A stretch of DNA of 44,489 bases, from positions 1 through 44,489 of the forward strand of contig PWHU01000081.1 in assembly GCA_003555395.1 (NCBI GenBank), written 5' to 3'. Positions 6,101 to 31,581 of this stretch are shown here, one piece after another (the stretch's first letter is position 1; every line of letters starts with the position of its first letter). The notes under the pieces were generated by a model. That model was not told the DNA's origin and ran no database searches. It saw nothing but the letters and a program-made list of their open reading frames with translations. Source of the DNA: Thermoplasmata archaeon (GTDB lineage: Archaea > Thermoplasmatota > Thermoplasmata > Halarchaeoplasmatales > Halarchaeoplasmataceae). Made by a program: the position numbers and the translations under genes.

Positions 6101-9100
6101 ATGATCTGAACTCGAGGGTTAAATCCTCTGCATCATTAGTATCTAAAGTCGGGGTCTCCAAGTATGCATAGTCATCTTCTATAGCCGCCCAAGAGAGCAT
6201 AGCTTCCGGTGGCTCTCCACCTGCATTGTTCGTATCGGATTGAGTCCAATCGTCGGTATCCCAACCTGCAGGCGGGAATTCTCCTGAGAAGTCTTCCATT
6301 ATACCAACTACGCGTTCCGCTGTAGCATTGACAGGTACGTCCGTTTCGTCATAATCACCGTAGTTCGAAACCGTTGCGTTAACCGGTTGAGTCTCATTCC
6401 ATACAACGGATTCGGGATTGGGTATCTCGTCCACGGCCACGTCATGTTCAGGATCGGTCACTTGCACTATCTCTTCCTGGTAATCGTTGGTCGGATCTTC
6501 ATCTGTATCTAGATCCGTGGTGATATTCACTCTATAGTCGCCTATACTGCTCGGCTCCCAATCGGCAAATGTCACGTTCATCTGTTCCTGTGCAGCCAAG
6601 TCGAATGTCGTGGTGTTGAAGTATTCTTCAGTCAAGTAATGCACATTGACCTCGTAGATATCCCAGTCATCCCAGTCGTCATCGAAGCTCTCCCATTCGA
6701 AGCCGACCTGTACTTCATCTTCTCCATCAGCTATATCGGAGATATCATACTCTTGTAGTCCGTCGGCCTCGTGGTCGGGTCCGTATTCCTCTATCAATTC
6801 CCAGGTGTCGCCTCCGTCTGGACTCACTTGGATTCTACCCCAAGAGTCATCATTGAATGTGAAAACATGGTCAACCTCAAGAATCGTCCCCTCTGCGTCA
6901 GTTGCATCTATCGTTGGTGAAATCAACCATTCTTCTTGGTCAACTGTAGCATCTCCTTCTACGGTAGCCATCGGGATATCATCCCAAGTTTCGTCCCAGT
7001 GCCAAGTGTTGGGTTCTTCCGTAGTATTCTCTATCGTCCAGTCAGCAGGGATCTCTTCCTCGAAATCCTCTTCGAGCAGATACACGAATTCTTCTATCGT
7101 AGCGTTCGCCGGGACATCTACCTCGTCGAACGTTCCGAAGTTCTCGGCCTCGGCAAACACCTCATGAGTATCATCCAACATTACAGAACCAGTCGGTGAG
7201 AATATCTCCGTGATACCGACATCATGGATATCCTGTACGATCATACTTTGCGTTTCATAATCATTACTCGGGTCTTCGTCTCCTTGAAGCTCAGTGGTAG
7301 CGTTCATGAAGAAACTCCCTTCTTCGCTCGGTGTCCAATCAGCAAATGTCGCGGTAACGTTCTCACCGGAGGGGACGTCCACTGTTGTTTCATCCGTATA
7401 TTCTTCATCTACAGTGCTAAATATCACGTCATCAACGTACCAATTATTTATATTCCAAGAATCACCGTCAAACTCGAACATGACCTGTGTCCCAGGGCCT
7501 ATGTGATCAGTTATGTCCACTTGGTAACTGTCAGGTCCAACATCCGATGTTATTGGATTTTCCCACGGTGTTATGTCTGTCCAACCTTCTCCATCTTCTG
7601 ATCTCACTGAAACATCGGCGTCAAATGGTCCGTCCTGATAACAGTCTATATAAGACTTGAACTCTAGGAAGAGTGTATCTTCACCTGAAGTATCTACAGC
7701 TGCGCTCTCGAGGTAAGAGTAATCGTCTTCAATGTCAAAATAATACAGATGCGCTTCCGGTGGCTCTCCACCAGCATTATCTGAATCCGATTGGGTCCAA
7801 TCGTCCGTGTCCCAACCGGTCGGCGGGAATTCACCGGAGAAATCTTCGTGAATCAAGATCTCTTCTTGACCGATCGTTACATTAACAGGCACATCCGTCT
7901 GATCATTATCTCCGAAATTGTGAACGTTGACCTCTACACTCTGCGCTTCTGTATTCACCAATTCATCAGGGGATAATATCTCTGTAACCCCTACATCATC
8001 AGCCTGCATCAACTTCTCAGTAAGGCCTTGTGAATCCGTGCCTTCCTCTAGATCATCGGGATGACCAGGATCCTCGTCCCAGTACCACCCTATTATCTCG
8101 CCGTCGTGTTCCACGTGAAGGCCTTCGTCAGCAGGATCTTCGGTCAAGGTTACGTTACCTTCGAAAACACCGGTAGGTTCACCTTCATCGTCGAAGACTT
8201 CATCCAGAGTGACGGTCATGTTCTCGAGTTCTTCGCCGTCGGCATCTAGACTAGATATATTGACATCGTGAGTTCCTTCCCCTTCTAGTATAACATCACT
8301 CAACGTGATCTCTACAACCTCGTCTCCAGCGTATTCATCTCTCTCGAACATTATCTCGCCGTCTTTGTCCGGAACGGTCACATCCGGCACGTTGTAAACG
8401 CTCAAGGCGAAGTCCTGATTCGCCTCACCATCGTCGTTAGCGTCTTCAGGCACGTTGGTACCCATGACTCTAACGGTATAACTGCCAGATTCTAACTCGT
8501 CGGGATGGATGAAAACGTTCTGAACGTTATTAACTTCGTCCCATCCGTCATCGTTATAATCGAAGTCTGCCATGACTTCCGCTTCCGGATAAGTGAAACC
8601 GTCGTCGCTTACACCGTCTCCAGTTTGATCGAACGCATTACCCCGGATCACCTCACCACCGGGAGTCTCGACTTCTAAATCAAGGTTATTCTTCAAAGTC
8701 GGTGTTCCGCCTTCGCTGTCACCTTCAAGAGCGTTCTTGTCCGTCCAAGTGAGAGTCACTTTCAGCGGTTCGTCTTCATCGCCAACAGAAACCGTATATT
8801 CCTCAACATCTCCTGTCTCCAAAAGCGTTTCTTGATCTACAAATTCAAATCCTAGTGGGTCGTCGGTCGGGTATTCAAGCTTTGATATATCTGGGACTCC
8901 CCATCCTTCGTCCCTATTTGGAATATGACCTCTCGTGTCTCCTATCTCGGGGTCCAACTCGTTAGCTGTGTTTATCAATATAGCTTTAACCAAAGCCGGA
9001 CTCGGAGTCTCCCCATAATTTTGCTGATACCAGTCAACTACTATCGTGGCTGCGCCTGCAGCAAGAGGATTACCAAAAGAGGTTCCGCTTGCCGAGATGT

Positions 9101-13899: not shown

Positions 13900-13904
13900 C
13901 TATA

Positions 13905-15758: not shown

Positions 15759-18233
15759 CTAGGCTTTCTCTCTTTTCATCAAGAATGCTAAGACGATTAT
15801 AACTACTGCCGCGAATAAAAGAATCGACCACCATACGATGAAAGGATCTTCTTCCTGCTCTTCCTCTATCACAGAAACAGTAATACTAGTTGTACTCTCC
15901 TCATCCTCATCTTCATGACTGATGATCTCAAGTTCGAAAGTCCCATTTTCTTCAGACTGCCAGGTAAAATTGCCTTCGTACACCTCGTCGGATCCGAGCG
16001 TGATTTCTTCACTATCTTTTAACTCGCCGTCTACTCTGAATTCGATGGTCTGCCTGCCCTGGATTTCTCCAGTATTCGTTACGGTATACTCTACAACGAC
16101 TTCTTCCCCTTCTACGACTTCTTTATTGTAATCGACTATATCTAATTCAAAGAACGGTTCACGTAAAAAGTGTGCTGTTATCTGCTTGTTGTCGTCCATA
16201 GTTATCGTTATTTCAGATTTTTCTTCTTCTCCTTCGGGCACATCGCCTTCCCAGTGGCTGAACACCCGATCGTCTTCAGGTATAGCTTCTACGGTCACGT
16301 CTTCTCCTTCCGTATAAGTGTACGTATCGGGCTCAGGTATTGTAGTTCCGCCTTCTTCCGCTTCTATAACTAGTTCAAATTCGACTTCTTCTTCTATCTC
16401 TTCAAAGTGCGCGGTGATATCGTGATCGTCTTCCATTGTTATGGTAGTCGAGTTGGATAAGGTATCATCTATTGTTCCATCGTCGCCAGTCCAATTCACA
16501 AATTTGTAACCTTCGTCAGCTACCGCTTCTAACTCAACGACATCTCCTCCTTCATAAGTATGCGTGCCTTCAACGGGTTCTACTACGCTACCTCCGTCCG
16601 TCGATCCTATCGTAAGACGATATTCAACACCAGGATCTTCCTCTTCCACTGAGAACTCGCTCTCCCATCGATCATCAAATTGCTGATAAAACTCGACTCT
16701 AACGTCATAAGTGCCCTCATCATCTTCAGAGTGTTGGAAAGTTACCGTAGTGGATTCACCGTGTTCTACGTTCACACTTTCATTCTCTACAAAAGAATCA
16801 TCGATGTATAGTTCTACAGCATCAACTCCCGTCTCCTCACCGATATTCTCAACCTGACCTTCGATGGTTAGTGTTTCGCCAGAACCTACAACTTCCGGCT
16901 CGATCGACCAATCCCGTAGAACGAGTTCAGCTTCATCCTCATCTTCTTCCACTATCTCGAATGAACTGTGCCACGTGTCGTCAATCCCTTCCTTTGTTCC
17001 ACACCACGCATGGATATGTACATCGTATGTGCCTTCTTCGCTCTCCGAATGAGTATGCATGAACGTTTCTGTCTCGCTAGGATCTAACGTATTCCAATTC
17101 GTGGATTCATAATCGCCGTCTATGTACAGTTCTGCAGACACGTCGCCGGTCTCATCGCCCACGTTCGTTATCTCGCCCTCTATGGTTACGGTCTCGTCAG
17201 ACTCAACCGTTTCCGGACTTACAGACCAGCCGGAAAGTTCGAATTCCGGAGTTCCATCCTGAATATCTGATATGTCCAAATCGGAACTCCATGTGTAAGG
17301 ATAATCTATCCAATAAAAATTTATCACGTCTCTAGCGCTCTCACCCTGCTCTTCATAAGGATACGGATTACCTGCGGTATACTCCTGATTATGATCGTCA
17401 TATGGGTTATAGGTATAAACGCTAGTACCCCTAGCGTCCCAATGCATTATGTGATCACCCATATAACCCGCTCCAAGGCCGGATATCCTCTGAGATCTAG
17501 AGTCCCAGTTCTCCCAATTATCGCGGATATGATGAAGTTGATCCTCCCAATGCCATCCCGAAACGTACGCGTCAGCGGCGATACCCATCCTGTGCGAATA
17601 TCCACCGAAGTTCCTGTATCCACTGATTATTATCACTGGTTCACCCGTTGATGTCCTAAGACCCTGTAAAAAATCTACGACTTCATAAGTGATCGACCAC
17701 TTGAATTGACCTCTCTCCGGGTCCGTAGTCCTTCTGCCGTCAGTATCATGATCGAGGCCCACGAATACAGTCTGACCGTCGGCATCGGCGTTGCAGTAAA
17801 ATTCACGTAGAACGAAATTAGGAATATCCAACGGGTTTATGTTGAGATCATTAGTTACGTAAAGATATCCCTGGTCAGTCGATACTTCTGGAGTGTATAT
17901 ATGATGGACATAATTTCCATCGAGCTCGTCTCCTGGTTGTATACCGTCCCAGCTACCGGTTTGGTGCAGGTGATCATAGGTATCGTCGTTCATGTAAACC
18001 TCCCACGTATCCTGATACATCTCCCAGCCGTTATCATTATACTTCACACCCGTTCTCGTTTCCTCATAGTTCCAGCTCTCAGCGATGACCGATTCAAGGT
18101 TTCCTTCGTTCGACCTTAAATCACCTAATCCGGCAGAAAAAATGGTCGTACCAGAGAACGTAGCTATTAAAAGTAGTAGAACCGCCAGAATAGGGAAAAA
18201 TTTAATTTGCTTTTTCATTTTTTCCTGCTCCAT
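15759..18233 (-). CDS. Secreted M15-like (D-Ala-D-Ala carboxypeptidase fold) peptidase with CARDB and InlB-type repeats, C-terminal TM
   Basis: Signal peptide; SGYRNFGGYSHRMGIAADAYVSG and HIMHWDARG match M15/DUF882 zinc-ligand motifs; CARDB-like and FVNWTGD..ITAHF repeats; C-terminal TM. Confidence 0.8.
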   Translation of the reverse strand: MEQEKMKKQIKFFPILAVLLLLIATFSGTTIFSAGLGDLRSNEGNLESVIAESWNYEETRTGVKYNDNGWEMYQDTWEVYMNDDTYDHLHQTGSWDGIQPGDELDGNYVHHIYTPEVSTDQGYLYVTNDLNINPLDIPNFVLREFYCNADADGQTVFVGLDHDTDGRRTTDPERGQFKWSITYEVVDFLQGLRTSTGEPVIIISGYRNFGGYSHRMGIAADAYVSGWHWEDQLHHIRDNWENWDSRSQRISGLGAGYMGDHIMHWDARGTSVYTYNPYDDHNQEYTAGNPYPYEEQGESARDVINFYWIDYPYTWSSDLDISDIQDGTPEFELSGWSVSPETVESDETVTIEGEITNVGDETGDVSAELYIDGDYESTNWNTLDPSETETFMHTHSESEEGTYDVHIHAWCGTKEGIDDTWHSSFEIVEEDEDEAELVLRDWSIEPEVVGSGETLTIEGQVENIGEETGVDAVELYIDDSFVENESVNVEHGESTTVTFQHSEDDEGTYDVRVEFYQQFDDRWESEFSVEEEDPGVEYRLTIGSTDGGSVVEPVEGTHTYEGGDVVELEAVADEGYKFVNWTGDDGTIDDTLSNSTTITMEDDHDITAHFEEIEEEVEFELVIEAEEGGTTIPEPDTYTYTEGEDVTVEAIPEDDRVFSHWEGDVPEGEEEKSEITITMDDNKQITAHFLREPFFELDIVDYNKEVVEGEEVVVEYTVTNTGEIQGRQTIEFRVDGELKDSEEITLGSDEVYEGNFTWQSEENGTFELEIISHEDEDEESTTSITVSVIEEEQEEDPFIVWWSILLFAAVVIIVLAFLMKREKA

Positions 18234-18436
18234 GGGATGATTTTAGGTATATAACTATCTCTTTTACAATACTTATAATCTCCGGAAAATGTAGATCCAC
18301 AAAGATTCTATGTGATGTAAAAGAGGATGATCTCGACCGAATAATAAAAAATATGCCTAATATTATCGAGCGTGGATTTTATATATATCAAAAACGATTT
18401 GCCTCTTACACACATCGAAGAACTACCTTACTAGTG

Positions 18437-21400
18437 ATGAAAAATATGAAAAAAATAAGCGACAGAGACAAGATACTACTTCACCTCTCGCATCATAAGG
18501 AATATGAGAGTGAAGATGTCGTCCCCCACGGCGTGTGCCAAAGAGGTATATCTGAAAGTATAGACCTGAATTATGATCGTGTAGGGGATTGTTTAGAAGA
18601 ATTGATACAGCAGGGATTAGTGAAACGTGAAGCTCGGTCCGTAGTAGGTCTCCAGCGCGACAGGAAAGTTTACTTTCCCACTGAAGAAGGCTATGAAAAA
18701 GCGGAGGATGAGCTTCGTGAGTCCTTAGGTGAGAAAGAGGTCACCGTGAAGACCAGAGATGGTGAAGAGAGGGTGAGATTAGAGGACATCCACGGGTATA
18801 CTGACGACGAACATCCCATGCTGTCCGGTTTGAAGAAGATGAACGAAGACGGTTTGATCGACCTTACTAGAGAAGTAGAGAATAGAGAAGATATCTTCGT
18901 AGGACGTGAAGACGAGCTTGAGAAGCTCAAGGAAGTGATGCAGAAAGTTGAGGAGCAGGGGTGCTCTATCATCTTTGTTACAGGTGACGCCGGAGTTGGA
19001 AAGACACGGTTAGTATCTGAATTTAAAGACTACGCGACTTCACACGGCTTCGAATTTCTAGCGGGCAGTGCTCACTACGACACTTCTGAGCCATACCTGC
19101 CTTTAAGGGAAGCCTTTGAAGAATATATGGAAAAAAGAAGTGAGGATATCGAAGATTTTACCAGCATGGCGTTGCTGGGTACGTCGGTAGGTGAAAAGAG
19201 TATAAAAGTAGAAGATAAGAAGATGTTCGACGCCGAGAGGACGGCGGACTGGAACAAGAGTACAGAGAGGGTAAGAGAAATAGCTTCTAGAAAACCTCTC
19301 TTAGTACTGTTAGACGATATGCAGTGGTCCGATCAAGCGACTTTACAGCTCTTACACTATATGATGAAAGAACTTTCAGATTCTCCTGTACTTTTCATCG
19401 TGGCTTTTCGATCCGAGGACGTGATAGAAGACCACGCCTTGGTGGAATTCAAGAGGAGAATGGTGCGTGAACGTCTCTTCTATGAGTTACAGTTAGAGCC
19501 GCTTGATAGCGACGACACGAGAGTGATCATAGAAGGCGAAATAGGAAGTGAAGACCCACCGGACGGTTTTGTTGAATTGGTGCATGATACTGCCGAGGGG
19601 AATCCTCTTTTCATACGTGAGGTCTTAAAGCAGATGTTAGAAGAAGGGGAGGTGGACCTAGAGAAAGGAGAATATCCTGAAAGAGTAGAAACCGCAGATA
19701 TGTTGGACGTTATCGACGACATTGTCAACAGAAGGATCAGGAGATTGAGTGATACTGCTGAGAGAGTTTTGTATAGGGCAGCAGTTATCGGAGAAAAAGT
19801 TCCTTTCGAACTGTTGACAAAAATGGTGAAGATGGATGAACTCGATCTGCTAGACCATCTAGATAACTTGGATAAGACCGGCCTGATATACGAGGACTTT
19901 TCTTCAGAAAATTTCATCTTCTCACATGGTTTAATACATAAGGCGATCTTCGATGGGATCTCGATGAGAAAGAGGGAGAAGATCCACCAGTTGGTCGCGA
20001 AAGGGATGAGAGAGTTATACAAGCAACGCGGAGAACTCGAAAATTATTATTCAGATTTAGCTTATCACTACGAAAAAGGAAAAAACTACGGGAAAGCGGT
20101 CGAAAATTACTACAAGGCCGGACAAGAGGCCGAAGAAGTTTACGCACACGAAGATGCCATCCAGATGTATCAGCATGCCTGTGAACTTTTGGAGAGAAGT
20201 GATGAGGACACTAGTATCGAGAAGATCACAGTGCTCGAGAAGATAGGCGACGCTAACAGGATCATAGGGGAGTACGAAGAAGCTGTAGAGTATTACAAGA
20301 GAGGTATAGATACAGCTCGAAAGGGAGAAAAAAAGGCCGGCCTATGCAGGAAGATAGCAAAAGTTTACGAAGAAAAAGGCGATTTTGACAGTTCTCTGCA
20401 GGAATGCGAAAAAGGATTCAAAATGGTGGATCAGGAATCGAGTGTGGAAGGTACAAAACTGCTTGGAAGTAAAGGCTGGGCGTTGTTGAGGAAAGGGGAA
20501 TATGACAAGGCTGAAGACATATTCTCCCGCAGGATAAACATCGCCGAGACCTTAGGTGATAAAAAAGAGGCTGCTCAAGCACAGCACGATATGGGCACCG
20601 TTTATCTACAGCTAGGTAACTATGAAGCAGCCTTGGTCCATCTGCAGAACGCTCTTGAGATGAGAAAAAAGATCGATGACGAGTCTGGTTTAGCAAGCAC
20701 TTTAAACAATCTAGGTATACTCTATGACGGTAAAGGAGAATTGAATAAGGCTCTTGAGTATCACAAGAAGGGGCTAGATATAGACAAGAAGATAGGTGAC
20801 AAATGGGGGACCGCTATCTCTTTTAATAATATAGGCACACTTTACCTTCGCAGCGGTGAACTTGATAAAGCGGTGGAGAAATATAAGCGTAGTATGCAAA
20901 TAGAAGAGATGATAGGAGATAAAAGAGGGATCGCATCTTCTCTCAGTAATTTAGGGAGAGTTCACCTGCTCAAAGAGGAATTCGAAGAGGCTTTGGAACA
21001 TTTTGAACACAGTCTAAATATATGCGAAGATATCGGGGCAAAGCTCTACAGTATAGACGCTTTGAGCGGTCTCGCAGAAACTAAGCTTTTGGAAGGCGAT
21101 TTAGAGGAGGCGTTTGTGAAAGCCGAAGAAGCTGTCGATAGGGCCGAGGAAGTAGGAGTTGAAAGCATGGAAGCCACAGCTCACAGAGTTCTGGGAATGG
21201 TATATAGGGAGAAAGAAAAATTTGTTAGAGCAGAAAAAGAGTTCCAGAAAGGTAAAAATTTATTGGAAGAAGTCGGCGAAAAGGTCGAGATTCCGCCGCT
21301 CCTCCATGAATATGGATTGTTGTTGAAAAAGATGGGGAGGAAAAAAGAAGCCGAACGTGAGTTATGTAAGGCAGTACAGATGGCTGATGAGATGGGCATG

Positions 21401-21442
21401 GAATTTTGGGCGGAGAAGTGTGAGATCGAGCTAAACGATTAG
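18437..21442 (+). CDS. wHTH-STAND/AAA_16-TPR protein (paralog 1)
   Basis: Walker A GDAGVGKTR, Walker B LLVLLDDMQWSD, STAND-type EGNPLFIRE motif, about 10 TPRs, N-terminal winged-helix-like region. The track start at 18353 lies upstream of a TATA-like box (18377-18389), so ATG 18437 or 18446 is preferred. Confidence 0.9.
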   Translation: MKNMKKISDRDKILLHLSHHKEYESEDVVPHGVCQRGISESIDLNYDRVGDCLEELIQQGLVKREARSVVGLQRDRKVYFPTEEGYEKAEDELRESLGEKEVTVKTRDGEERVRLEDIHGYTDDEHPMLSGLKKMNEDGLIDLTREVENREDIFVGREDELEKLKEVMQKVEEQGCSIIFVTGDAGVGKTRLVSEFKDYATSHGFEFLAGSAHYDTSEPYLPLREAFEEYMEKRSEDIEDFTSMALLGTSVGEKSIKVEDKKMFDAERTADWNKSTERVREIASRKPLLVLLDDMQWSDQATLQLLHYMMKELSDSPVLFIVAFRSEDVIEDHALVEFKRRMVRERLFYELQLEPLDSDDTRVIIEGEIGSEDPPDGFVELVHDTAEGNPLFIREVLKQMLEEGEVDLEKGEYPERVETADMLDVIDDIVNRRIRRLSDTAERVLYRAAVIGEKVPFELLTKMVKMDELDLLDHLDNLDKTGLIYEDFSSENFIFSHGLIHKAIFDGISMRKREKIHQLVAKGMRELYKQRGELENYYSDLAYHYEKGKNYGKAVENYYKAGQEAEEVYAHEDAIQMYQHACELLERSDEDTSIEKITVLEKIGDANRIIGEYEEAVEYYKRGIDTARKGEKKAGLCRKIAKVYEEKGDFDSSLQECEKGFKMVDQESSVEGTKLLGSKGWALLRKGEYDKAEDIFSRRINIAETLGDKKEAAQAQHDMGTVYLQLGNYEAALVHLQNALEMRKKIDDESGLASTLNNLGILYDGKGELNKALEYHKKGLDIDKKIGDKWGTAISFNNIGTLYLRSGELDKAVEKYKRSMQIEEMIGDKRGIASSLSNLGRVHLLKEEFEEALEHFEHSLNICEDIGAKLYSIDALSGLAETKLLEGDLEEAFVKAEEAVDRAEEVGVESMEATAHRVLGMVYREKEKFVRAEKEFQKGKNLLEEVGEKVEIPPLLHEYGLLLKKMGRKKEAERELCKAVQMADEMGMEFWAEKCEIELND

Positions 21443-21444
21443 TT

Positions 21445-24400
21445 TTATTTTTCTTTTTTTAATTCTTCCAATGAGTTAAGGATCTTCCTTGATAAGCTGG
21501 GTCCGATGCCTTTAACTTCTTTCAGGTCCTCTTTCGAAACGTCTTTCATATCTTCTATGGAACGATAGCCCTCTTCGTAAAGATTTTCGGCTTTAGAAGA
21601 TCCGACCCCTTTGAGCCGCTTAAGTTCTTCTAAAGCTTCCTCTTTCGATATCTCTTCAGGGGTTCCTTCATCTTCTTCTACTTCTTTTTCAGTATACTCT
21701 ACTTCCTCTTCCTTCGATACAGGCGTAGGAAGTGGTTTTTCTCTTCTAGCCGTTGCCTCGGTGATCTCCTCTGTCTCTTGCACATCTTCAGGTTCAAATT
21801 CTTTTTCAGGTCTCCATGTATCGAACTCTTGACTCCCTTTCGTCTCTTCACCCTCATAGGTGATATTCAATTTGTAGTGGTCTCTCACATCTTCGTCCTC
21901 TTTGTGCACAGCTCTTAAACAGACTTCCGAACTCTCCCCTTTCTCTGCGGATCGAGGTATATCTACATTGACGAGAACGAGTTCGTCGCTCTCTCCTTCC
22001 ACTACTATCTCATCCTCTACTTCCGTTTTCCAGCCCCTTGTAGACGATTCAACTGCAAGTTCGTAGGTCTCGCTCCCTTTACCGTGATTGGTAACTACGA
22101 AATCGTATGTATAACTTCTATCGAGTTCCATCTCGATCTGATCTTCCGGCCCAGTGACTGAAACATCATGTGATTCACTATTATAAAACAGAATGAAGAA
22201 TAATAAGATTACGGGGACGATCATGGCTAAAAGGCCCACAAGCCAAAATTCCACAGGCAGCAGTGTACTTTCCTCCGCTTCTTCTTCAAAATGCACAGTG
22301 ATAGATATGTCATCTTCTATAGTGATACTAATCTCCTTTTCGTCTGCTTCGTGTTCACCGGTCCATTCGACGAACTTCCAACCGTCTTCCGGCTCGGCGG
22401 TAAGCACAACTTCGGTCCCTTCCTCGTATTCATCTTCATCAGGATATAGCTCTACATCTCCTTGACCTTCTAAATCAACCGTAAGGCCATAGAGTCGGAT
22501 GAAGTGTGCTGTCAAAGTCTTATCTTCATCCATCACTATGGTTATCTCCTTCTCCTCTTCCTCTCCTTCGGGCACGTCTCCTGACCACTCTGTGAAGTTC
22601 CATCCTTCCTCAGGAACCGCTCGTATCAAGATCATCTCCCCCTCGGGATAACTGTATGTCCCATGCTCAGGATCCGTGGTGCCGCCTTCCTCTTCGTTAA
22701 TGGTAAGGTTATACTTAGTGATGTCTTCTTTGAAGTGCACAGTTACCTCTTTATCTTCATCCATCACTATGGTTATCTCCTTCTCTTCATCGCTGGTTAC
22801 GTCACCGGACCAGTGACTGAAGGCCCAACTCTCAGCGGAGATAGCTTCGACAGTGACTTCCTCTCCTTCTTCGTAGGTATGTGTACCTTCCTCAGGCTCG
22901 GTAGAACCCTCTCCTTCAATACTTATAGTAAGGTCATACTTTTCCTTCTCTTCCACGGTCAAAGTAGTCACGGGAGATACTACTCCTTCAAAGGTGGCTG
23001 AAACATCATACTCTCCGCTCTTTTCTTCGTAAAAGATCGCTACGTTCTCTTCGCCATCAACTTCAGATATATTCTCCCACTCGAACTCCGTCACATCGTC
23101 CGTTATCAAGTTACCGTATCTATCATTGCCTTCTACAGTGAACTCTAATTCCTCTCCAATAGATACGGATCGATCAGCGGAAGGATAGATAGTCACTTGT
23201 TCTAAATCCGCGGCCTCTACCGTCAAGTGAGCGGTATCTTCGGATCCTTTGTACTCACCATATACGGCCCAATCTCCGACGAATTCTGAGGTATACTCGT
23301 TTGCATCCCATCCGCCTCCTGCTTCAGCTTCTATACTCCAGTTAGTCTCTTCCGTTACATCTCCTATCTCGTTGTCGAATACATCATAGGCGGTAGCGTT
23401 ATAGGTCACGTTACCTCCCGCTGTAGTGGTCTCCTCCTGCGGCTCTATAGCTATATTTTCAAGTTCCGCCGACTCTACCGTTAGAGTGGTCACAGCCGAT
23501 TCCACCTCTGCACCTTGTCCCGTGATCTCGTGTTCCCCCGCATCTGTGTCGTAGTAGTAGAAGTCCACTGCACTCTCACCATCGTTTATCACCACTTCTG
23601 TAACTACTTCTCCCCCGGGTTCCTCTCTAAACTCATAGGGACCTTGAGAAGTAGTTGTAAGACCGATTGTCAGATCCCCCATCGTCACCTCGTCACCGTC
23701 TTCATCCAACCGTTGGATCGTGAATCCCTCTTCGTTGCCGGCGGTCATGGTCTCGACTGGGTCTAAATAAACCAGTTCATGCGCTTCTTTCGGCTCCAAG
23801 TAAAAATCTTCTGTCAAATCTTCACCGGGCGGTAAAGTGATCTGAACTACATCGTCTTGATGAGCCGGCACCTCGGTCACTTCTAAAGCGTATTCGGTGT
23901 AGTCAGCATTTAGGTCTTCGAACAGATAACTTGCATCTGCGGAGAGGTCGTGCGTTTCCACCTCGTTGCCGTCCAAGTAGAGCGTCACTTCACCGGCGGA
24001 GGCTTCCTCTCCCTCATGCCCATAGACAGTTCCACCGATAGATCCTTCTTCAGCCTCTAGTGCAAATAACGCTAGGAAGCCGACGTTCGAGTGTTCACCG
24101 CCATCCCACGTGAGTGTGGTCTCCCAAGGGTGATCGCCGTCGTGAACAGAGGTAAAACCCGTGACACCGTGTACCTCAGAACCGTCTTCATCTCCGATAG
24201 CGTGAACTACGTCACTCAAATTTTCATCATCGAATCTCGGATCTTCAAAGTCTCCGCCGTCACGACATGCGGCACCGCCTATGACGAAGACGTTCGAGGA
24301 AGAAGGTGCGGATGTCGTTCCTATGTGAAAACCGGTCTCATTATCCACGCCGGTCTCAGCAGCGGTCGCAGCATCTTCGAATCCGACCGTGTAAGGGCCT

Positions 24401-24846
24401 TGAAATTCCTGGAGGACGAAAAATCCATTCCGACCGTCCTCATCTTCATCCCATGTGACCGTGACCTCTTCAGGCTCGTTTTCAGAGGCGATCTTGGACC
24501 ACATCGCCACAGCACGGCGTTCACCGCCATCGTCTAGGTCCGCATATACTTCCACATTAAGGTCCCAATCTTCATCGTCAAGGTACGGATCTTCATAATC
24601 CACCCGGTGTCCAGAGAAGGCGATGAGTAGGTTACCTTCCACAGGGGACTGATCCCATCCTGCCGTTATACCGTCCAAGGAACCGTCGGCGTCGACGGAC
24701 TGGACCCTCTCCAACGGTGGTTCTTCCAACACCGCATCTTCCGCACTAACGAGAGCGTTCACTCCTGCGGTAAATCCAGTTAAAATGAGAAATATCAGGC
24801 AAAAAAAAGTGATCATTTTCTTCATATTCCTATCCATATCCTTCAT
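21445..24846 (-). CDS. Secreted surface protein (CarboxypepD_reg-like, Big-like, three InlB-type repeats), TM, NEW3-like domain and C-terminal tandem helix-hairpin-helix
   Basis: Signal peptide MKKMITFFCLIFLILTGFTAG; repeats W.FVEWTGE..ITVHF; TM LLPVEFWLVGLLAMIVPVILLFFILFY; C-term LKRLKGVGSSKAENLYEEGYRSIEDMKDVSKEDLKEVKGIGPSLSRKIL. Track start is 24912; ATG 24846 fits better with TATA at about 24893. Confidence 0.88.
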   Translation of the reverse strand: MKDMDRNMKKMITFFCLIFLILTGFTAGVNALVSAEDAVLEEPPLERVQSVDADGSLDGITAGWDQSPVEGNLLIAFSGHRVDYEDPYLDDEDWDLNVEVYADLDDGGERRAVAMWSKIASENEPEEVTVTWDEDEDGRNGFFVLQEFQGPYTVGFEDAATAAETGVDNETGFHIGTTSAPSSSNVFVIGGAACRDGGDFEDPRFDDENLSDVVHAIGDEDGSEVHGVTGFTSVHDGDHPWETTLTWDGGEHSNVGFLALFALEAEEGSIGGTVYGHEGEEASAGEVTLYLDGNEVETHDLSADASYLFEDLNADYTEYALEVTEVPAHQDDVVQITLPPGEDLTEDFYLEPKEAHELVYLDPVETMTAGNEEGFTIQRLDEDGDEVTMGDLTIGLTTTSQGPYEFREEPGGEVVTEVVINDGESAVDFYYYDTDAGEHEITGQGAEVESAVTTLTVESAELENIAIEPQEETTTAGGNVTYNATAYDVFDNEIGDVTEETNWSIEAEAGGGWDANEYTSEFVGDWAVYGEYKGSEDTAHLTVEAADLEQVTIYPSADRSVSIGEELEFTVEGNDRYGNLITDDVTEFEWENISEVDGEENVAIFYEEKSGEYDVSATFEGVVSPVTTLTVEEKEKYDLTISIEGEGSTEPEEGTHTYEEGEEVTVEAISAESWAFSHWSGDVTSDEEKEITIVMDEDKEVTVHFKEDITKYNLTINEEEGGTTDPEHGTYSYPEGEMILIRAVPEEGWNFTEWSGDVPEGEEEEKEITIVMDEDKTLTAHFIRLYGLTVDLEGQGDVELYPDEDEYEEGTEVVLTAEPEDGWKFVEWTGEHEADEKEISITIEDDISITVHFEEEAEESTLLPVEFWLVGLLAMIVPVILLFFILFYNSESHDVSVTGPEDQIEMELDRSYTYDFVVTNHGKGSETYELAVESSTRGWKTEVEDEIVVEGESDELVLVNVDIPRSAEKGESSEVCLRAVHKEDEDVRDHYKLNITYEGEETKGSQEFDTWRPEKEFEPEDVQETEEITEATARREKPLPTPVSKEEEVEYTEKEVEEDEGTPEEISKEEALEELKRLKGVGSSKAENLYEEGYRSIEDMKDVSKEDLKEVKGIGPSLSRKILNSLEELKKEK

Positions 24847-24941
24847 GCTTTCTTCACCTATTATCTTCGGAAAATTTAAACCGACGTGTTTATAAACTAT
24901 AAGCAACCACATGATATAAAAGTGTTAGGAAGAACTCCCTT

Positions 24942-25304
24942 TCAAAAATCATGCCAGCTCTTGTGAGCCTCTATCTTCTTGAATTTTGTCCCACAATTGG
25001 GACAGACCTCGAATCTTGCCGATATCTGTTTGCCGCATTTACCGCATTGGACATAATTAGGGTCGTATTCAGTTCCACACTCGGGACAAACGTCCGCATC
25101 TCGCGGTATCGACTCGTGACAGGACCCGCATTCCGCTATATCTCCGGAGTCTCGATGTTTTATCTTCTGTACCGAAGAAGGGAGTCTAGAACCTCCTTCG
25201 GATCCTTCACCTTCGACTTTTAGGTCCTTCCCGCAGTCCCCACAGTAATTGGCTGTTTCATCGACTTCCGACCCACAGTTCGAACAATATGGCAAATGTA
25301 TCAT
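24942..25304 (-). CDS. Multi zinc-ribbon protein
   Basis: Repeated CxxC pairs: CSNCG..CGDCG, CGSCH..CPECG, CGKCG..CPNCG. Confidence 0.85.
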   Translation of the reverse strand: MIHLPYCSNCGSEVDETANYCGDCGKDLKVEGEGSEGGSRLPSSVQKIKHRDSGDIAECGSCHESIPRDADVCPECGTEYDPNYVQCGKCGKQISARFEVCPNCGTKFKKIEAHKSWHDF

Positions 25305-25418
25305 TCCTCCGCCCTAATAAGTCCATCCTGAACCGTAACAGGGCAAAAGTGTATCTATTTTAGATTATATATCTTTTAGGGTCTGCAATATAGAAAAAAT
25401 AAAAAAGAAATGTTTTTA

Positions 25419-25868
25419 TCAGAAAAACATACCGAACGGAACTGTGTTTATCACCAGGGCAAATGCGATCATGGACGCACTAGCCACCATACACAGCATG
25501 AGTTTTTCTTGATCGGATAGGTCGTACCTGCTGTAAAGAAGATATGCCGATCCTATGGCCGGGATGAATATACCTATAGTTATCAGTAGAGAACCTATAG
25601 ATCGCAGGTACCTGATGTTATCGAAGGCGTCTTCCCGATCTTCCATATCATCAGGATTAGGGTCGATGAAACCCGAGACCGATATCAACATAGCGCCGGT
25701 CAACAGTATGATCATCCCGAGAACCAATATGATCCCCAAGGTATGTTTTAGATCTCCTCTTCCTTGATACGAAGCAGGCGGCTGTTGTTGTTGAGGAGCA
25801 GGCTGTTGATATCCCTGGGAATAGTTTTGTTCCCGTTGTTGTCCTTCACCATTCATTTTTTCACTCAT
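25419..25868 (-). CDS. Membrane protein with Q/P/Y-rich N-terminal tail
   Basis: MSEKMNGEGQQREQNYSQGYQQPAPQQQQPPASYQ followed by three to four TM helices. Start at 25868 preferred over 25886. Confidence 0.7.
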   Translation of the reverse strand: MSEKMNGEGQQREQNYSQGYQQPAPQQQQPPASYQGRGDLKHTLGIILVLGMIILLTGAMLISVSGFIDPNPDDMEDREDAFDNIRYLRSIGSLLITIGIFIPAIGSAYLLYSRYDLSDQEKLMLCMVASASMIAFALVINTVPFGMFF

Positions 25869-25915
25869 AAATCGATATCGTATCAATTATTTATACATTC
25901 GGTTGTAAAAACTGA

Positions 25916-28447
25916 TCAAAGATACTCCATACATTTTTCCATCCAGAGATCCATACCTCTTTCATCAAAATAGCTTTTAGCTTCTTCAAACAGTCTTTCC
26001 GCTTTTTCGTCCAGTCCTTTCTCCAGGCACAGCAGACCGAAATCGTACATGCACATAGCACCGATATCCATGGGTTCTGTCTCTTCAAATATCTCCAAAG
26101 CGTTTTCAAAATGTTCCATTGAGCTCTCAAAGTCGCATTTTTCACGGAGGACCGCCCCTTTCAAATACTCCGTCAAAGCACTGTCTCTCTCCACGTCTCG
26201 ATCCGAAGTTGCTTCTACCAGGTTTTCCAAATGCTCTTTGGCCATTTTGTAGTCGCCTCTCTCGAGTGCCAACTGTATCCACACGCGCTCACACTGTACA
26301 GTTTTGTCAAGATGACCTGTCCTTTCGGACAGCTCTAGGCCCTCTTTCAGGTAATCTAGCGCTTTATCGTATTCACCTTTATCGAAGTATACCTCCCCTA
26401 TGTTCACCACGGTATGGCACTTTATGAACTCGTTATCCATCTTCTCAGATATATCATAGCATTCCCGCAGGTGTTTCAAAGCCCTGTCGTGATCACCCTT
26501 CTTCTGATATATCAGGCCGATGTTGTTATGTATGCCGCCTATTTGGACTTCGGCACCCATGTCCTGGTATATATCTAAACATCTTTTGTACTCCTCTAAC
26601 GCCTTATCAAGGTCGCCGATATATGCAAATACTCCTGAGAGATTGCTGAGCGTCCTGGACAGCCCCATCTGATCGTCGATACGTTCACGTAAATCCTTGG
26701 CCTTTTCAAGATTCTTTAAGGCATCCTCGTGTTTTCGTCGCATCAGAGCTATGGTTCCAAGATCGTGGTAAGCCTGGGCGACCTGCTTTTCATCTTCTAG
26801 ATCTTCAGCGACCTCTTTTTCCTTGTTGAACGCCTCTACGGCTTCATCGTAGCTGCCCATCTGCATCAATGACCAACCCTTCTTTCCGAGCAGTTGGCTC
26901 TTTTCAAGGTTGTTCTCGTTCTCAAGAGATAGCCTTTTCTCTATGAGGTCTAAAGCTTTTTCATACTCTCCGTGCTCCTGCCAAGTGTTGATTATGTCAA
27001 GATATATTTTCTGCTCCTCTCTAAAATTAGAAGCGATACTCAAGGCCTTATACAGGTGATCCTGACTCTTTTCGTAATCGCCGTTTAGCCTGTAAGCGTC
27101 TGCCATCTCCTTCAATATTTTCATCTCCTGTATGTCGTCGATCCAGGACGATATCGCCCTAGCTTCTTCGTACATCCTTATAGCGTCCTCATTGGCATAA
27201 ACATTTTTCGCTCTCCGTGCTCCCTTCAGATAATAGTCGAGGGCCTCGTGATATCTCTCTGCCTCCTTGTAATGTTCCGCCAGTTGAGCATATCTCTCAT
27301 CTAACTCCTCCTCATAGACATCCTCTAAGGCTTCAGCTACTCTCAAGTGTAATCTTTTCTTCTCCAACCATTTTCCTATACCATTATAGACGGTCTCGGC
27401 GATGACTTCGTGCGAGAACAAAAATTTGTCCTCTATGGGATCTTCTATCCAAAGTCTAGTTTTTATCAACTTATCGATCTCGTCCAAGAGTTCGAATTCA
27501 TCCATCTTCGAAGCGCTAGCCAGCAGAGAGAAAGGGATCTCTTTTCCGATCACACTTCCGAGCTGGAGCATCTCTCTAGCTCGGTCGTCCATCCTGAAGA
27601 CTCTTCTCTCAACAACGTCACGTACCAAACCTGCAAAAGAGAACTCTTCCTCCTTCTCAGGGAATTCGCCTTCATCTAGAGAGATAACGTTAGATTCGAC
27701 CATCTGTCGTATACTTTCTTTGATGAAGAGTGGGTTACCTTCGGTCTTTTCATACAGTATCTCCACGAAGTCAGAAGGCAAGTCCTCGACGCCGGTGATA
27801 TCGTTCACGAGGTCCCAAGTCTCATCAAAAGTAAGAGGTTCTAATTCTATCTCGTCGAAAAGATTCTTTCGAGACATCTGCTGCTTCATATCTATGAAAG
27901 AAGAACCAGAGATCGCCTCACCGGGCTGATACGTTGCTAAAAACAATATGGGTGTGTTTTTGAGTCGATCCGAAAGGTAGTGGAAGAGATTCAAAGTTGC
28001 CTTATCGGCCCAATGTATATTCTCTATTATTATCAGATGTGGAGTTTGACCCACCGCTTGTCTAAGCTGTTCCGTGGTTTCGTAGAAAGCTACTCCTCTG
28101 TACTGTCTGTAAGTTTTAACATCCTCCTTTTCTTCCAATAGGTCCTCCTCACCTACGGTAAAAGACAGAGAATCCAAAGCTTCTTTCTCCGAATCCATCC
28201 ATATCTGCTGAAACGGAAGATAGGGTTCGGCCGTGGTTTCACTGCATACACCCTCCAAAACATCGAAACTTCTGTCACCGGCCATGGTTTTTATCTCTCT
28301 CATCAATTCGGATTTACCCACACCCGGTTCGCCTGAAACAAAAATCGTGTTTCCTTTTCCGTTTTCTACTTCGGCCAATATTTTAGAAAATACATCTAAC
28401 TCGTCCCTGCGACCTATCATCTTTCCTTCTTCGAGAACACGTTCCAT
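25916..28447 (-). CDS. STAND/AAA_16-TPR protein without wHTH (paralog 2)
   Basis: Starts directly at IGRRDELDVF; Walker A GEPGVGKSE; Walker B LIIIENIHWAD; TEGNPLFIKE; TPR array. An SD (ggaggt) lies in the last codons of the upstream gene. Confidence 0.92.
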   Translation of the reverse strand: MERVLEEGKMIGRRDELDVFSKILAEVENGKGNTIFVSGEPGVGKSELMREIKTMAGDRSFDVLEGVCSETTAEPYLPFQQIWMDSEKEALDSLSFTVGEEDLLEEKEDVKTYRQYRGVAFYETTEQLRQAVGQTPHLIIIENIHWADKATLNLFHYLSDRLKNTPILFLATYQPGEAISGSSFIDMKQQMSRKNLFDEIELEPLTFDETWDLVNDITGVEDLPSDFVEILYEKTEGNPLFIKESIRQMVESNVISLDEGEFPEKEEEFSFAGLVRDVVERRVFRMDDRAREMLQLGSVIGKEIPFSLLASASKMDEFELLDEIDKLIKTRLWIEDPIEDKFLFSHEVIAETVYNGIGKWLEKKRLHLRVAEALEDVYEEELDERYAQLAEHYKEAERYHEALDYYLKGARRAKNVYANEDAIRMYEEARAISSWIDDIQEMKILKEMADAYRLNGDYEKSQDHLYKALSIASNFREEQKIYLDIINTWQEHGEYEKALDLIEKRLSLENENNLEKSQLLGKKGWSLMQMGSYDEAVEAFNKEKEVAEDLEDEKQVAQAYHDLGTIALMRRKHEDALKNLEKAKDLRERIDDQMGLSRTLSNLSGVFAYIGDLDKALEEYKRCLDIYQDMGAEVQIGGIHNNIGLIYQKKGDHDRALKHLRECYDISEKMDNEFIKCHTVVNIGEVYFDKGEYDKALDYLKEGLELSERTGHLDKTVQCERVWIQLALERGDYKMAKEHLENLVEATSDRDVERDSALTEYLKGAVLREKCDFESSMEHFENALEIFEETEPMDIGAMCMYDFGLLCLEKGLDEKAERLFEEAKSYFDERGMDLWMEKCMEYL

Positions 28448-28452
28448 GGCTC

Positions 28453-31400
28453 TTAACCTCCTACTGATCTCAAGGTATCCTTCATAGCTCTATCACATCT
28501 TTCGATCCAAAGTTGCATACCTATCTCTTCAAAATACTCCGATGCATCTTCGAGCACTTCTTCGGCCCGGGGGTGATCTTCTTTTTCTAGAAAAAGTAAA
28601 CCCATCTCATAAAGAACTTTCGAATATTCGATGATCGATATGTCTTCGAGTATCGCACCCGCCTTATCCAGCTCTTCCTCCGCCCTATCTATCTTTCCTT
28701 CTTCCCTACATAACTTTCCGAGCACTCTTCTGCATTCTCCCTCCACTTCATCGGTATCGATTTTTTTGGAAAGCAGCAGGGCTTTCTCGATCTTCTCTCT
28801 CGCCTTTTCTATTTCATCTTTTTCAAGATAAACTTCAGACATGGTTATCAAAGTGGAGGAGACGTCCAATTCTTCTCCCACGTCCTTCAACAGACCGTAG
28901 GCTTCTTTAAGGGAGTCTAAAGCCTTCTCCGTGTCTCCTCTTTCGTGATATGTATCACCCAACGACTGAAGCACCCAGCCTACTCTTACCGGATTACCTG
29001 TTCCTCTGAACATATCGAGACTTCTCTTTTGAAGTTCCAAGGCTTTTTCCAATTCGCCCTTCAATCTGTAAGTTATCGCCATATTGTTCAAACACATAGC
29101 AAGACCTATCTCGTAGTCTACTTTCTTTTCGACTTTTTCGGCCCTTTCGAAGTGCTTCAGTGCGGTATCCAATTTTCCACTATCTCGATAGATATCGCCG
29201 AGATTGTTTAGAGTTATACCCACGCCGAGGATATCTCCCATCTTCTGAAAGTTTTCTAGGTTCTGTCTGAAATAATCTTTCGCTTCATCCCATTCCCTGA
29301 GATACATCTTGACCAAGGCTAGGTTGTTGAGTGACGAGGCCAATCTTTCATCTTTACCGCATTCTTCCCATGTCTCTATCGCTTTTCCGAAGTGATCCGC
29401 TGCCGTGTCCATGTTACCCTGAAGGTAATTGAGAGATCCAAGATCATGCTTGGACTGGGCCAAGGCCTCTTTCTCGCCGGTCTCGTACGCCATCTCTTCC
29501 TCACGCTGGAACAATATCCTCGCCTTCTCGTGCTCTCCTTTGTGCATGTATGCCTGCCCTTTATTGCTTAGAAGTTTACAAAGTTCGTGTACGAGTTCAT
29601 CTTTATCGTGCTTGTCCAAAAGTGAGAGCCCTTTATCCGCATATTCTAGACCTTCATCGAGGTACTTTTGTTCCAATTTCATACCGGCTAACTTTCTGTA
29701 TGTCCTAAGGCCCCTCTTCTTGTCGATATCGCTGTCGAGTATAGAGCGGAGGAACTCCTCGCACTTGTCGTACCTGCCCAACGTCTTGTAGACCGATGCC
29801 GCTTCTTCTCTTATAGCAAGCATCCTATCTCTACCATCATCCTGTTTTTCCGCTGTTGAGAGCGCTTTACGATACATCTCCAAAGCGTCTTCGTGGGCAT
29901 ATATGCTCTTAGCTCTCTCTCCCGCTTTTGTGTAGTAGTCACAGGCCTTTTCGTACTCATCGGCTCTCTCGTAGTGATAGGCCAATTTAGGATATTTCTC
30001 ATCTAGATCTTCATAGTGTACTTTTTCCATGGCCTCGGCGACCTGTTTATGTAAAAGCCGTTTTTTGAGACCTCTCAGATTGCTGTAGACCGTATCCCTC
30101 AATATGCTGTTATGAAAATAGACCTTCTCCTCATCTGGACTTTCACGCCATAGGTCCGCTTCGAGCAGGATATCCATCTGATCGAGAAGGTCGAACTGGT
30201 CGAGGTCGACTACCTCAGAAAGCACTTTGTAGTCCACTTCATCACCGAAGACACTCCCTATGTCAAGTACTTTTTTAGCCTCGCCGCTCAAACGGTCTAT
30301 CCTTCTTTCCAGCACATCCTTGATTATCTCCGGAACGTCGATGACACTCTTACGGGAAGGATAAACGTCATCGTCCGGCCGGACTATACCTTCTTCCACC
30401 ATGTGTTTGACTATCTCCCTGGTGAAAAGGGGATTGCCTTCAGTCTTTTCGTGTACGAATTCTACATACTTAGATGGAACCTCCTTTGTCTGAAGCACAC
30501 CTTTTATCATCCTTTCAGTACTCTTTTTACCTAAAGGCGAAAGTTCCATCTGAGAGACGTTAGGATAGATGGTGATCATCTGATGGATGATCTCCTTTAT
30601 CTGTTTATTTTCATCTATATCTTCGGGCCTGTACGTGCATACGAAAAGGACCGGCGCGGACCCGAGCTTATACGTCATGTACATCAATATCTGTGCGCTA
30701 GCTCGATCTATCCAGTGAAGATCGTCAAGAAATACCAAAAGAGGATTTTCTTTTGCCAGATCCCTTATATATTCAGTGGTCTCATAAAATGTCGCCTCCT
30801 TTTCTGCATCGAACATCTTTTTGGTGGGTACATCCCTGGTCTTATCCATACCCATGAAGGCGATCCTTGCACCTTGGTCCATCTGGGCTTCTTCCTTCTT
30901 TTTAAGATGAGAGCGAAAAGCCTCCTTGAAAGGAAGATATGGATCCCCGGTCTCTTTCACACAAGTTCCTACCAGGAAGTCGAAACCTTCCTCCAAAGCG
31001 TAGCTCTTGAACTCAGAAACGATCCTCGTTTTCCCCACGCCCGCTTCGCCGGCGATGAAAACGGTGTGGGCACCGGATCTTTTCACTTCTTGAAGTCTTT
31101 TCCAAAGATCGTTCAACTCCTGTTTCCTCCCAACGAAAACGTATTCCGAGCTGATATCTTCGTCAAGTCGTACCGTCCCGTCTCTTTCCATCCTGCTCAA
31201 GATATTGAGCATGGGATCCTTCAAGTCAAGGTGATCTCTCACTTCCTTCAGCGGGATCTTCTTGACTTTCTGACCCACTTTTATACGGACCTTTTCATCT
31301 TTTATACTTTCTCTCAAGTCTTTTTCTTCTTCGATGCCCTCGTCGGTCAAAAAGTAAACGTGCCTTTTCCTCTTTCTGCCTTTCACGTGCTTCTTTCTCT

Positions 31401-31581
31401 TTTCGATCAAACCCTCCTCGAGAAGAGATCCGATACCTTTGTGTATCTTTTTTCTCTCGTTTTCGATAGCGCTAGCGATACCCGACAGAGACGTACCGAA
31501 GGGTACCACGTCCCGTTCTTTGTGAACTTCGTAGTCTTTCAAGTGCAGCAGGATGAGTTCTTCTATACCGTAAACAGTCAT
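28453..31581 (-). CDS. wHTH-STAND/AAA_16-TPR protein (paralog 3)
   Basis: N-terminal wHTH (DVVPFGTSLSGIASAIENERKKIHKGIGSLLEEGLIEK..HVYFLTDEG), Walker A GEAGVGKTR, Walker B LLVFLDDLHWID, TEGNPLFTRE, TPR array. Confidence 0.93.
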   Translation of the reverse strand: MTVYGIEELILLHLKDYEVHKERDVVPFGTSLSGIASAIENERKKIHKGIGSLLEEGLIEKRKKHVKGRKRKRHVYFLTDEGIEEEKDLRESIKDEKVRIKVGQKVKKIPLKEVRDHLDLKDPMLNILSRMERDGTVRLDEDISSEYVFVGRKQELNDLWKRLQEVKRSGAHTVFIAGEAGVGKTRIVSEFKSYALEEGFDFLVGTCVKETGDPYLPFKEAFRSHLKKKEEAQMDQGARIAFMGMDKTRDVPTKKMFDAEKEATFYETTEYIRDLAKENPLLVFLDDLHWIDRASAQILMYMTYKLGSAPVLFVCTYRPEDIDENKQIKEIIHQMITIYPNVSQMELSPLGKKSTERMIKGVLQTKEVPSKYVEFVHEKTEGNPLFTREIVKHMVEEGIVRPDDDVYPSRKSVIDVPEIIKDVLERRIDRLSGEAKKVLDIGSVFGDEVDYKVLSEVVDLDQFDLLDQMDILLEADLWRESPDEEKVYFHNSILRDTVYSNLRGLKKRLLHKQVAEAMEKVHYEDLDEKYPKLAYHYERADEYEKACDYYTKAGERAKSIYAHEDALEMYRKALSTAEKQDDGRDRMLAIREEAASVYKTLGRYDKCEEFLRSILDSDIDKKRGLRTYRKLAGMKLEQKYLDEGLEYADKGLSLLDKHDKDELVHELCKLLSNKGQAYMHKGEHEKARILFQREEEMAYETGEKEALAQSKHDLGSLNYLQGNMDTAADHFGKAIETWEECGKDERLASSLNNLALVKMYLREWDEAKDYFRQNLENFQKMGDILGVGITLNNLGDIYRDSGKLDTALKHFERAEKVEKKVDYEIGLAMCLNNMAITYRLKGELEKALELQKRSLDMFRGTGNPVRVGWVLQSLGDTYHERGDTEKALDSLKEAYGLLKDVGEELDVSSTLITMSEVYLEKDEIEKAREKIEKALLLSKKIDTDEVEGECRRVLGKLCREEGKIDRAEEELDKAGAILEDISIIEYSKVLYEMGLLFLEKEDHPRAEEVLEDASEYFEEIGMQLWIERCDRAMKDTLRSVGG

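What the first reader, a model, noticed from the sequence alone, without database searches (positions are those of the whole stretch)
15759..31581. Candidate uncharacterised system: STAND/AAA-TPR triad interleaved with modular surface proteins and zinc-ribbon proteins
Seen: three long paralogs share GxxGVGKxx, hhhhDDhxWxD-type Walker B, (T/A)EGNPLFxxE and C-terminal TPR arrays. Two carry an N-terminal wHTH-like region and one lacks it. They bracket an M15-like surface peptidase, an HhH surface protein, a multi zinc-ribbon protein and a Q-rich membrane protein. Knowledge: MalT-, GutR- and Avs-type STANDs use the NTPase as a switch and the repeats as a sensor. Inference: this could be a ligand- or threat-sensing regulatory module controlling surface proteins, or a defence-like switch.
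Basis: partly seen in the sequence, partly recalled or inferred. Interest (0 to 1): 0.62.

Follow-up and report, generated by a model that had tools for sequence, protein, structure and literature searches.

The report
Switch proteins paired with surface proteases
Salt-lake archaea carry a large family of ATP-driven switch proteins with a DNA-binding head, and in relatives of this genome these genes repeatedly sit back-to-back with genes for giant cell-surface proteases, with a palindromic DNA site at the protease promoter, so they look like dedicated on/off switches for the cell surface.

Summary
The window has three AAA_16-TPR paralogs; two carry an N-terminal winged helix and one lacks it. 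They are not a self-contained triad: the genome holds about 15 relatives, and the three fall in different clades.

Across 16 genomes of one halophilic Thermoplasmatota family, 18 of 37 wHTH paralogs are divergently transcribed from a large secreted protein, usually a giant subtilase. Controls give 4/462 and 0/198, and wHTH-less paralogs 0/12. The wHTH folds as a PadR/MarR-type domain (pLDDT 88.5).

In 12 of 18 divergent gaps an ACATGT palindrome lies about 10 bp before the surface gene's TATA box, against 5 of 220 other intergenic regions. Two gaps outside the discovery set also have it. Most subtilase genes without a neighbouring switch gene lack it.

Best explanation: locally acting MalT-like transcription switches, probably activators, of adjacent surface-protein genes. 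In the window only P0001/P0002 has the divergent layout, and it lacks the palindrome, so the claim there rests on analogy.

Zinc-ribbon and defence readings are not supported. The closest known architecture is PH0952 of Pyrococcus, whose target is unknown to me.

The parts
28453..31581 (-). P0005, wHTH-AAA_16(STAND-type NTPase)-TPR regulator; wHTH about 31132-31581, Walker A ending at aa 185, Walker B DDLHW at aa 286, GNPLF at aa 382
25916..28447 (-). P0004, wHTH-less AAA_16-TPR paralog, 5 bp behind P0005, with altered Walker B (IIIENIHW); tandem P0005-P0004 pair also in G010 (L198) and G014 (L210)
18353..21442 (+). P0002, wHTH-AAA_16-TPR regulator; probable true start 18446; divergent from P0001
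15759..18233 (-). P0001, secreted/anchored modular surface protein (CARDB, Flg_new_2, C-terminal TM); weak M15-like N-terminal domain; divergent partner of P0002
18234..18445 (.). Divergent control region P0001/P0002. A 10-bp inverted repeat (18259-18268 and 18316-18325) brackets the probable P0001 TATA element. No ACATGT palindrome
   Evidence: P about 0.02 by shuffles
21445..24912 (-). P0003, surface protein with Flg_new_2 repeats, TM segment and C-terminal HhH; convergent with P0002 and last gene of the P0005-led run
24942..25304 (-). P0006, multi zinc-ribbon protein in the P0005-led same-strand run
25419..25886 (-). P0007, Q-rich small membrane protein in the P0005-led same-strand run
198..10841 (-). 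Giant (3547 aa) surface subtilase with intact D/H/S motifs. Same family as the giants that sit next to wHTH-STAND genes in relatives, but not adjacent to one here

Best explanation
The wHTH-carrying paralogs are STAND-type transcription switches. The TPR array is the sensor, the NTPase with its GNP motif is the ADP/ATP latch, and the N-terminal winged helix binds a palindrome as a dimer or higher assembly. They act mainly on the neighbouring surface-protein gene. In most relatives with the link this is a giant subtilase transcribed divergently from the switch gene. The palindrome lies directly upstream of the BRE/TATA of the surface gene, where archaeal activators usually bind, so activation is more likely than repression. 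P0002 would control P0001 in this way. P0005, with its wHTH-less partner P0004, would control the same-strand run down to the surface protein P0003. Shown here: architecture, predicted fold, recurrent linkage, palindrome and its fixed spacing in relatives. Inferred: DNA binding, direction of control, ligand, and every step for the window's own two regulators.
For: Divergent large surface gene next to 18/37 wHTH-AAA16-TPR genes, against 4/462 genes in control regions (Fisher p 2.6e-19), 0/198 in-locus control genes, and 0/12 wHTH-less paralogs (p 0.0015). Most neighbours are giant subtilases sharing a ~900-aa N-terminal part; the catalytic D/H/S motifs are intact in the window's member. wHTH model pLDDT 88.5; Foldseek probability 1.00 to PadR-operator, MarR and AspA structures, although no E-value is below 1e-3. 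ACATGT is the top 6-mer in the divergent gaps: 12/18 against 5/220 other intergenics (p 2e-12), at least 10-bp palindromes 8/18 against 0/220; shuffles give a mean of 0.84 and a maximum of 4. AT-rich TATA-like run at 9-12 bp on the surface-gene side for most sites, scattered on the switch side. Gaps outside the discovery set, L204 and L199 (same-strand switch then subtilase), have ACATGT before the subtilase TATA. About 40 subtilase genes not chosen for a switch neighbour: ACATGT in only 2, one of them at a contig edge. Presence of ACATGT follows an Arg in the recognition helix (12/14 against 0/4, p 0.005, post hoc); L180, L181, L172 and L207 have other full or partial palindromes near the TATA.
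Against: The window's own P0001/P0002 gap has no such palindrome, only a 10-bp inverted repeat (P about 0.02), and P0005 is divergent from an ADP-ribosylglycohydrolase, not a surface gene. The window's giant subtilase is not next to a switch gene. About a third of the wHTH paralogs (for example L173, L174, L175, L187, L191, L211) have no large surface neighbour. Trees of partners are only weakly congruent (Mantel r 0.30, p 0.037; not significant within G002). Eleven of the linked genes form one clade from three genomes, so the Fisher p values overstate the number of independent events. Surface proteins were called with a hydropathy rule. No expression or binding data exist.
Confidence: 0.6

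Rival explanations
1. Shared genomic islands. Surface genes and switch genes both accumulate in variable regions and end up adjacent without a regulatory link.
For: In the window the block lies against a conserved housekeeping flank: G003 has only the P0004 ortholog there and G002 has no switch gene. P0001's N-terminal domain is absent from all relatives. Partner trees are only weakly congruent. Flg_new_2-type surface genes are very abundant: 81 matches in this genome, 110 in G003.
Against: The arrangement is specifically divergent and specific to wHTH-bearing paralogs. The palindrome sits at fixed spacing from the surface gene's TATA and is rare at subtilase genes without a switch neighbour.
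Confidence: 0.2
2. The switches are regulators of wider regulons, or regulate mainly themselves; the surface gene is only one incidental target of a divergent promoter.
For: Divergent regulators are often autoregulated (general knowledge). Several paralogs have no surface neighbour. The wHTH domain occurs in 220 of 300 genomes of the class, in several open-frame sizes.
Against: In same-strand loci L204 and L199 the palindrome is before the subtilase, not before the switch gene. Spacing is fixed on the surface side, not the switch side.
Confidence: 0.12
3. Defence or threat-sensing STAND system (Avs-like) in which the NTPase-TPR proteins recognise invaders and kill or shut down the cell.
For: STAND-type architecture, rapid paralog expansion, variable genomic setting; an ADP-ribosylglycohydrolase is the neighbour of P0005.
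Against: No Avs or other defence-specific PADLOC hit. No nuclease, protease, NADase or pore effector domain fused; the effector position holds a DNA-binding type wHTH. Neighbours are surface genes and housekeeping genes.
Confidence: 0.05
4. The P0005/P0004 pair is a signalling hub whose wHTH serves protein contacts or oligomer assembly rather than DNA binding; P0004 is a catalytically altered partner.
For: Tandem P0005-P0004 gene pair recurs in G010 and G014. P0004 and two orthologs have departures from the DD Walker B (EN, ED, DN). No operator found upstream of P0005.
Against: The wHTH is of the PadR/MarR kind with a basic wing, and close relatives have promoter palindromes.
Confidence: 0.1

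Closest known systems
PH0952 of Pyrococcus horikoshii (PDB 6MFV; [quoted passage not shown]
   Same: Same domain order: wHTH, NTPase with GxP motif, helical part, TPR sensor. Also an archaeal putative transcription regulator.
   Different: No sequence match to it in the PDB searches. Described in the paper as a putative regulator without, to my knowledge, a known target. Not described there as a large paralog family paired with surface proteases.
MalT of Escherichia coli (STAND transcription activator)
   Same: NTPase switch plus TPR sensor controlling transcription; TPR region matches the MalT-like TPR model.
   Different: MalT has a C-terminal LuxR-type HTH; here the DNA-binding domain is N-terminal and of PadR/MarR type. 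MalT controls a dispersed regulon; here the predicted target is the neighbouring gene.
AAA_16-TPR modules of TOMM kinase/cyclase and AfsR-type proteins
   Same: Best NCBIfam stretch matches are the AAA_16-TPR part of TOMM_kin_cyc (E to 5e-55) and AfsR.
   Different: No kinase, cyclase or SARP domain, and scores far below the family cut-offs.
Avs (antiviral STAND) proteins
   Same: STAND-type NTPase with C-terminal repeats.
   Different: No Avs model hit, no effector domain, and a wHTH in the effector position.
PadR/MarR family regulators
   Same: Fold of the N-terminal domain; binding of palindromes by dimers is the family habit (general knowledge).
   Different: Fused to an NTPase-TPR switch instead of a small ligand-binding dimer.

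Membership tests
STAND NTPases | Walker A and hhhhDD Walker B | tested here: met
   P0002 and P0005 met; P0004 has IIIEN, so the second acidic residue is lost there
STAND NTPases | GxP motif in the helical domain contacting the nucleotide | tested here: met
   GNPLF at aa 416, 382 and 237; sequence position only, no structure of this region
STAND NTPases | STAND-specific winged-helix domain after the helical domain, closed ADP-bound resting form | not tested
   Region 420-560 of P0005 was not modelled; nucleotide state needs biochemistry
STAND NTPases | C-terminal repeat sensor | tested here: met
   TPR_12 E 3e-48 to 3e-57; TPR_MalT E 3e-13 to 6e-25
PH0952-type archaeal STAND regulators | N-terminal DNA-binding wHTH followed by NOD and TPR | tested here: met
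PH0952-type archaeal STAND regulators | Sequence kinship of the NOD with the PH0952 clade | tested here: inconclusive
   6MFV not among PDB matches with a single sequence or the 5-row profile; no clade phylogeny made
MalT | C-terminal LuxR-type HTH | tested here: not met
   C-termini end in TPR; no LuxR HTH among the listed matches
Avs antiviral STAND | Match to Avs models and an N-terminal effector | tested here: not met
   PADLOC hits only generic TPR/NTPase; effector position holds wHTH
PadR/MarR-type DNA-binding wHTH | Three-helix wHTH with beta-hairpin wing | tested here: met
   H6-20, H32-39, H43-55, E59-66, E72-78, H80-93 at block pLDDT mostly 95-98; Foldseek probability 1.00
PadR/MarR-type DNA-binding wHTH | Binds palindromic operator DNA | not testable with these tools
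   Palindromes found at the promoters in relatives; binding not measured
Giant S8 surface subtilases (window 198-10841) | Intact catalytic D, H, S | tested here: met
   TADTGIG, GHYHGTA, SASGTSFGNP; Peptidase_S8 E 1.1e-31
M15 peptidases (P0001) | Match to an M15 family model over the cut-off | tested here: not met
   PF08291 E 0.071, 13.7 bits against cut-off 23.2

The most novel reading that the evidence does not exclude
Each genome of this halophilic Thermoplasmatota family carries a repertoire of largely orthogonal modules: one giant surface protease (or other giant surface protein) plus its own STAND switch that recognises a module-specific palindrome. The cell could then choose its surface proteases in response to separate signals, comparable in logic to dedicated sensors of polysaccharide-utilisation loci, but built from an archaeal STAND.
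Probability: 0.33. Interest if true: 0.75.

Novelty: new variant of a known kind. Interest (0 to 1): 0.6.

Why it matters
Large archaeal STAND transcription regulators such as PH0952 have a structure but, to my knowledge, no assigned target. Here a whole family gets a predicted target class (giant surface proteases), a predicted operator and a predicted position on the promoter, all testable with single-domain DNA-binding assays. If right, it shows STAND switches used as dedicated, multiplied controls of the archaeal cell surface, with recognition helix and operator changing together, which would also make paralog-specific DNA recognition testable.

Tried and rejected
Defence reading: PADLOC gave only background. 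Zinc-ribbon and Q-rich protein as partners: no recurrence. Strict co-inheritance of switch and protease pairs: weak Mantel signal only. ACATGT as a general subtilase promoter element: rejected by about 40 subtilase genes. The ACATGT operator in the window or own genome: only two ACATGT in the window, neither at these promoters, and 5 pattern hits in the genome; this fits the absence of the Arg-type recognition helix in the own-genome paralogs examined, but it means the window itself has no operator evidence. M15 identity of P0001: below threshold. Shared motif upstream of P0002 or P0005 relatives: nothing convincing. The truncated gene upstream of L316 as a hidden switch gene: it is not one. 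Literature searches found no earlier description of this pairing; most subscription journals are not covered.

Full report
What is in the window. The window is a whole contig (C144) of a 2.03-Mb, 94% complete genome. The three long paralogs are real: P0002 on the + strand, P0005 and P0004 on the - strand with a 5-bp gap. All are AAA_16-TPR proteins, and P0002 and P0005 have an N-terminal winged helix. P0005, P0004, P0007, P0006 and P0003 lie on one strand with gaps of 5, 29, 114 and 29 bp and could be one transcription unit. P0001 and P0002 are divergent; the gap is 119 bp to the annotated start and 212 bp to the probable start.

Not a triad but a family. The own genome has 15 matches to the wHTH-AAA profile at E<=1e-20, some of them parts of genes cut by contig ends; relatives in the genus and family have 2-20. 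P0002's nearest relative is a paralog on C79 (69% identity). P0005 groups with single genes of G010 and G014, and P0004 with different genes of G003, G010 and G014. The P0005-P0004 tandem recurs in G010 (L198) and G014 (L210). The block is variable: beside the conserved flank genes (32630-38888) G003 has only a P0004 ortholog, and G002 has no switch gene.

Link to surface genes. I fetched neighbourhoods of the best matches without regard to their neighbours, plus control regions. wHTH-AAA16-TPR genes have a divergently transcribed large (>=600 aa) surface protein as upstream neighbour in 18 of 37 cases. Control regions give 4 of 462, in-locus control genes 0 of 198, and wHTH-less paralogs 0 of 12. 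Same-strand surface genes follow in L185, L199 and L204. Most partners are giant subtilases (S8) with a shared N-terminal part of about 900 aa and modular remainder. The window's 3547-aa protein at 198-10841 belongs to that family (72% identical over the N-terminal part to the L194 giant, which sits next to a switch gene) and has intact catalytic motifs, but here it is 7.5 kb from P0002.

Caveats on this statistic: eleven linked genes form one clade from three genomes (G002, G008, G009), so p values overstate independence. Linkage also occurs in other clades (L196/L182/L207/L209; L201/L208; L199/L185/L204; P0002/L172). Surface proteins were called with a hydropathy and acidity rule.

The wHTH. 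The N-terminal 150 residues of P0005, modelled with 41 relatives, give pLDDT 88.5 with helices 6-20, 32-39, 43-55, wing strands 59-66 and 72-78, and helix 80-93. Foldseek finds AspA of pNOB8, PadR bound to operator DNA, MarR and others at probability 1.00, though with E-values of 3e-3 or weaker. The domain is widespread in the class: 220 of 300 genomes.

A promoter palindrome. In 18 divergent gaps (including the window's), ACATGT is the most enriched 6-mer: 12/18 against 5/220 other intergenic regions, p 2e-12. Palindromes of at least 10 bp on this core are in 8/18 against 0/220. Shuffled gaps give a mean of 0.84 and a maximum of 4 in 2000. Flanks differ between paralogs but are palindromic: TATCACATGTGATA, TAGAACATGTTCTA, CTTACATGTAAG, CGACATGTCG, CCACATGTGG. 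On the surface-gene side an AT-rich TATA-like run begins 9-12 bp after the core in most sites; on the switch side it is scattered. L181 and L180 have other full or partial palindromes at a similar distance from the TATA, and L172 and L207 have palindromes near it. Gaps outside the discovery set: L204 and L199 both show ACATGT before the subtilase TATA. Subtilase genes not chosen for a switch neighbour: 2 of about 40. Arg in the SRxxxS recognition helix goes with ACATGT (12/14 against 0/4). This association was noticed after the fact, but the own-genome paralogs examined lack that Arg, and the own genome shows almost no such sites.

Mechanism. From established knowledge of STAND proteins (PMC6468293): the resting form is closed and ADP-bound, the sensor binds an inducer, ATP replaces ADP, and the protein multimerises and activates its target. 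Here the effector is the N-terminal wHTH. A site directly upstream of BRE/TATA is where archaeal activators usually bind (own knowledge), so I favour activation of the surface gene. The signal is unknown. Transfer to the window is by analogy: P0002/P0001 has the layout but not the palindrome, only a 10-bp inverted repeat around the probable P0001 TATA (P about 0.02), and P0005 has no operator that I could find.

Known or new. Architecture: known kind (PH0952; MalT as functional archetype with the DNA-binding domain at the other end). Deployment as a multiplied set of local switches of giant surface proteases with module-specific palindromes: not found in the literature searched. I therefore file it as a new variant of a known kind.

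Noticed in passing
own genome, L051 (C79) 2-16052 and L057 (C165) 5400-9056; also L399, L405, L415: Another subgroup of these NTPase-TPR proteins has a ~160-aa domain inserted between Walker A and Walker B. Its model (pLDDT 72) has longin/roadblock topology and matches AP2 sigma, Ragulator, VAMP7 longin, TRAPP and MglC at Foldseek probability 1.00. The genes sometimes sit next to Ras-like small GTPases: own genome, G001, G053 and G039. This suggests a GTPase-gated STAND and deserves its own study.
   Followed up: partly
window 198-10841: A 3547-aa surface subtilase with PKD, Flg_new_2 and CARDB domains; this genome has about 10 subtilases of the family, some fragmentary.
   Followed up: partly
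L051 804-1832 and window 21445-24912: The HhH domain at the end of the surface protein P0003 is 50% identical to the HhH tail of a Ras-like GTPase on C79, an odd sharing between a surface protein and a cytosolic GTPase.
   Followed up: no
window 25916-28447 and orthologs L186, L198: P0004 and two orthologs have departures from the DD Walker B (EN, ED, DN), as expected for a catalytically altered partner of P0005.
   Followed up: partly
window 12178-13308: A PAS histidine kinase beside RDD-membrane and ABC-transporter genes, between the giant subtilase and the switch genes.
   Followed up: no
window 31675-32646: An ADP-ribosylglycohydrolase gene is divergent from P0005.
   Followed up: no
L209 2415-2758: The gap between switch gene and subtilase holds a long inverted repeat (GCAAAATTGAGGGCACTGTAAAAAGG and its complement) that looks like a small inserted element.
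   Followed up: no
L098, L100: Contigs filed under Syntrophomonadaceae and Nitriliruptoria encode close wHTH relatives and are probably misbinned archaeal contigs.
   Followed up: no
family genomes: Flg_new_2-type (InlB B-repeat) surface segments are extremely abundant: 81 matches in this genome and 110 in G003.
   Followed up: no
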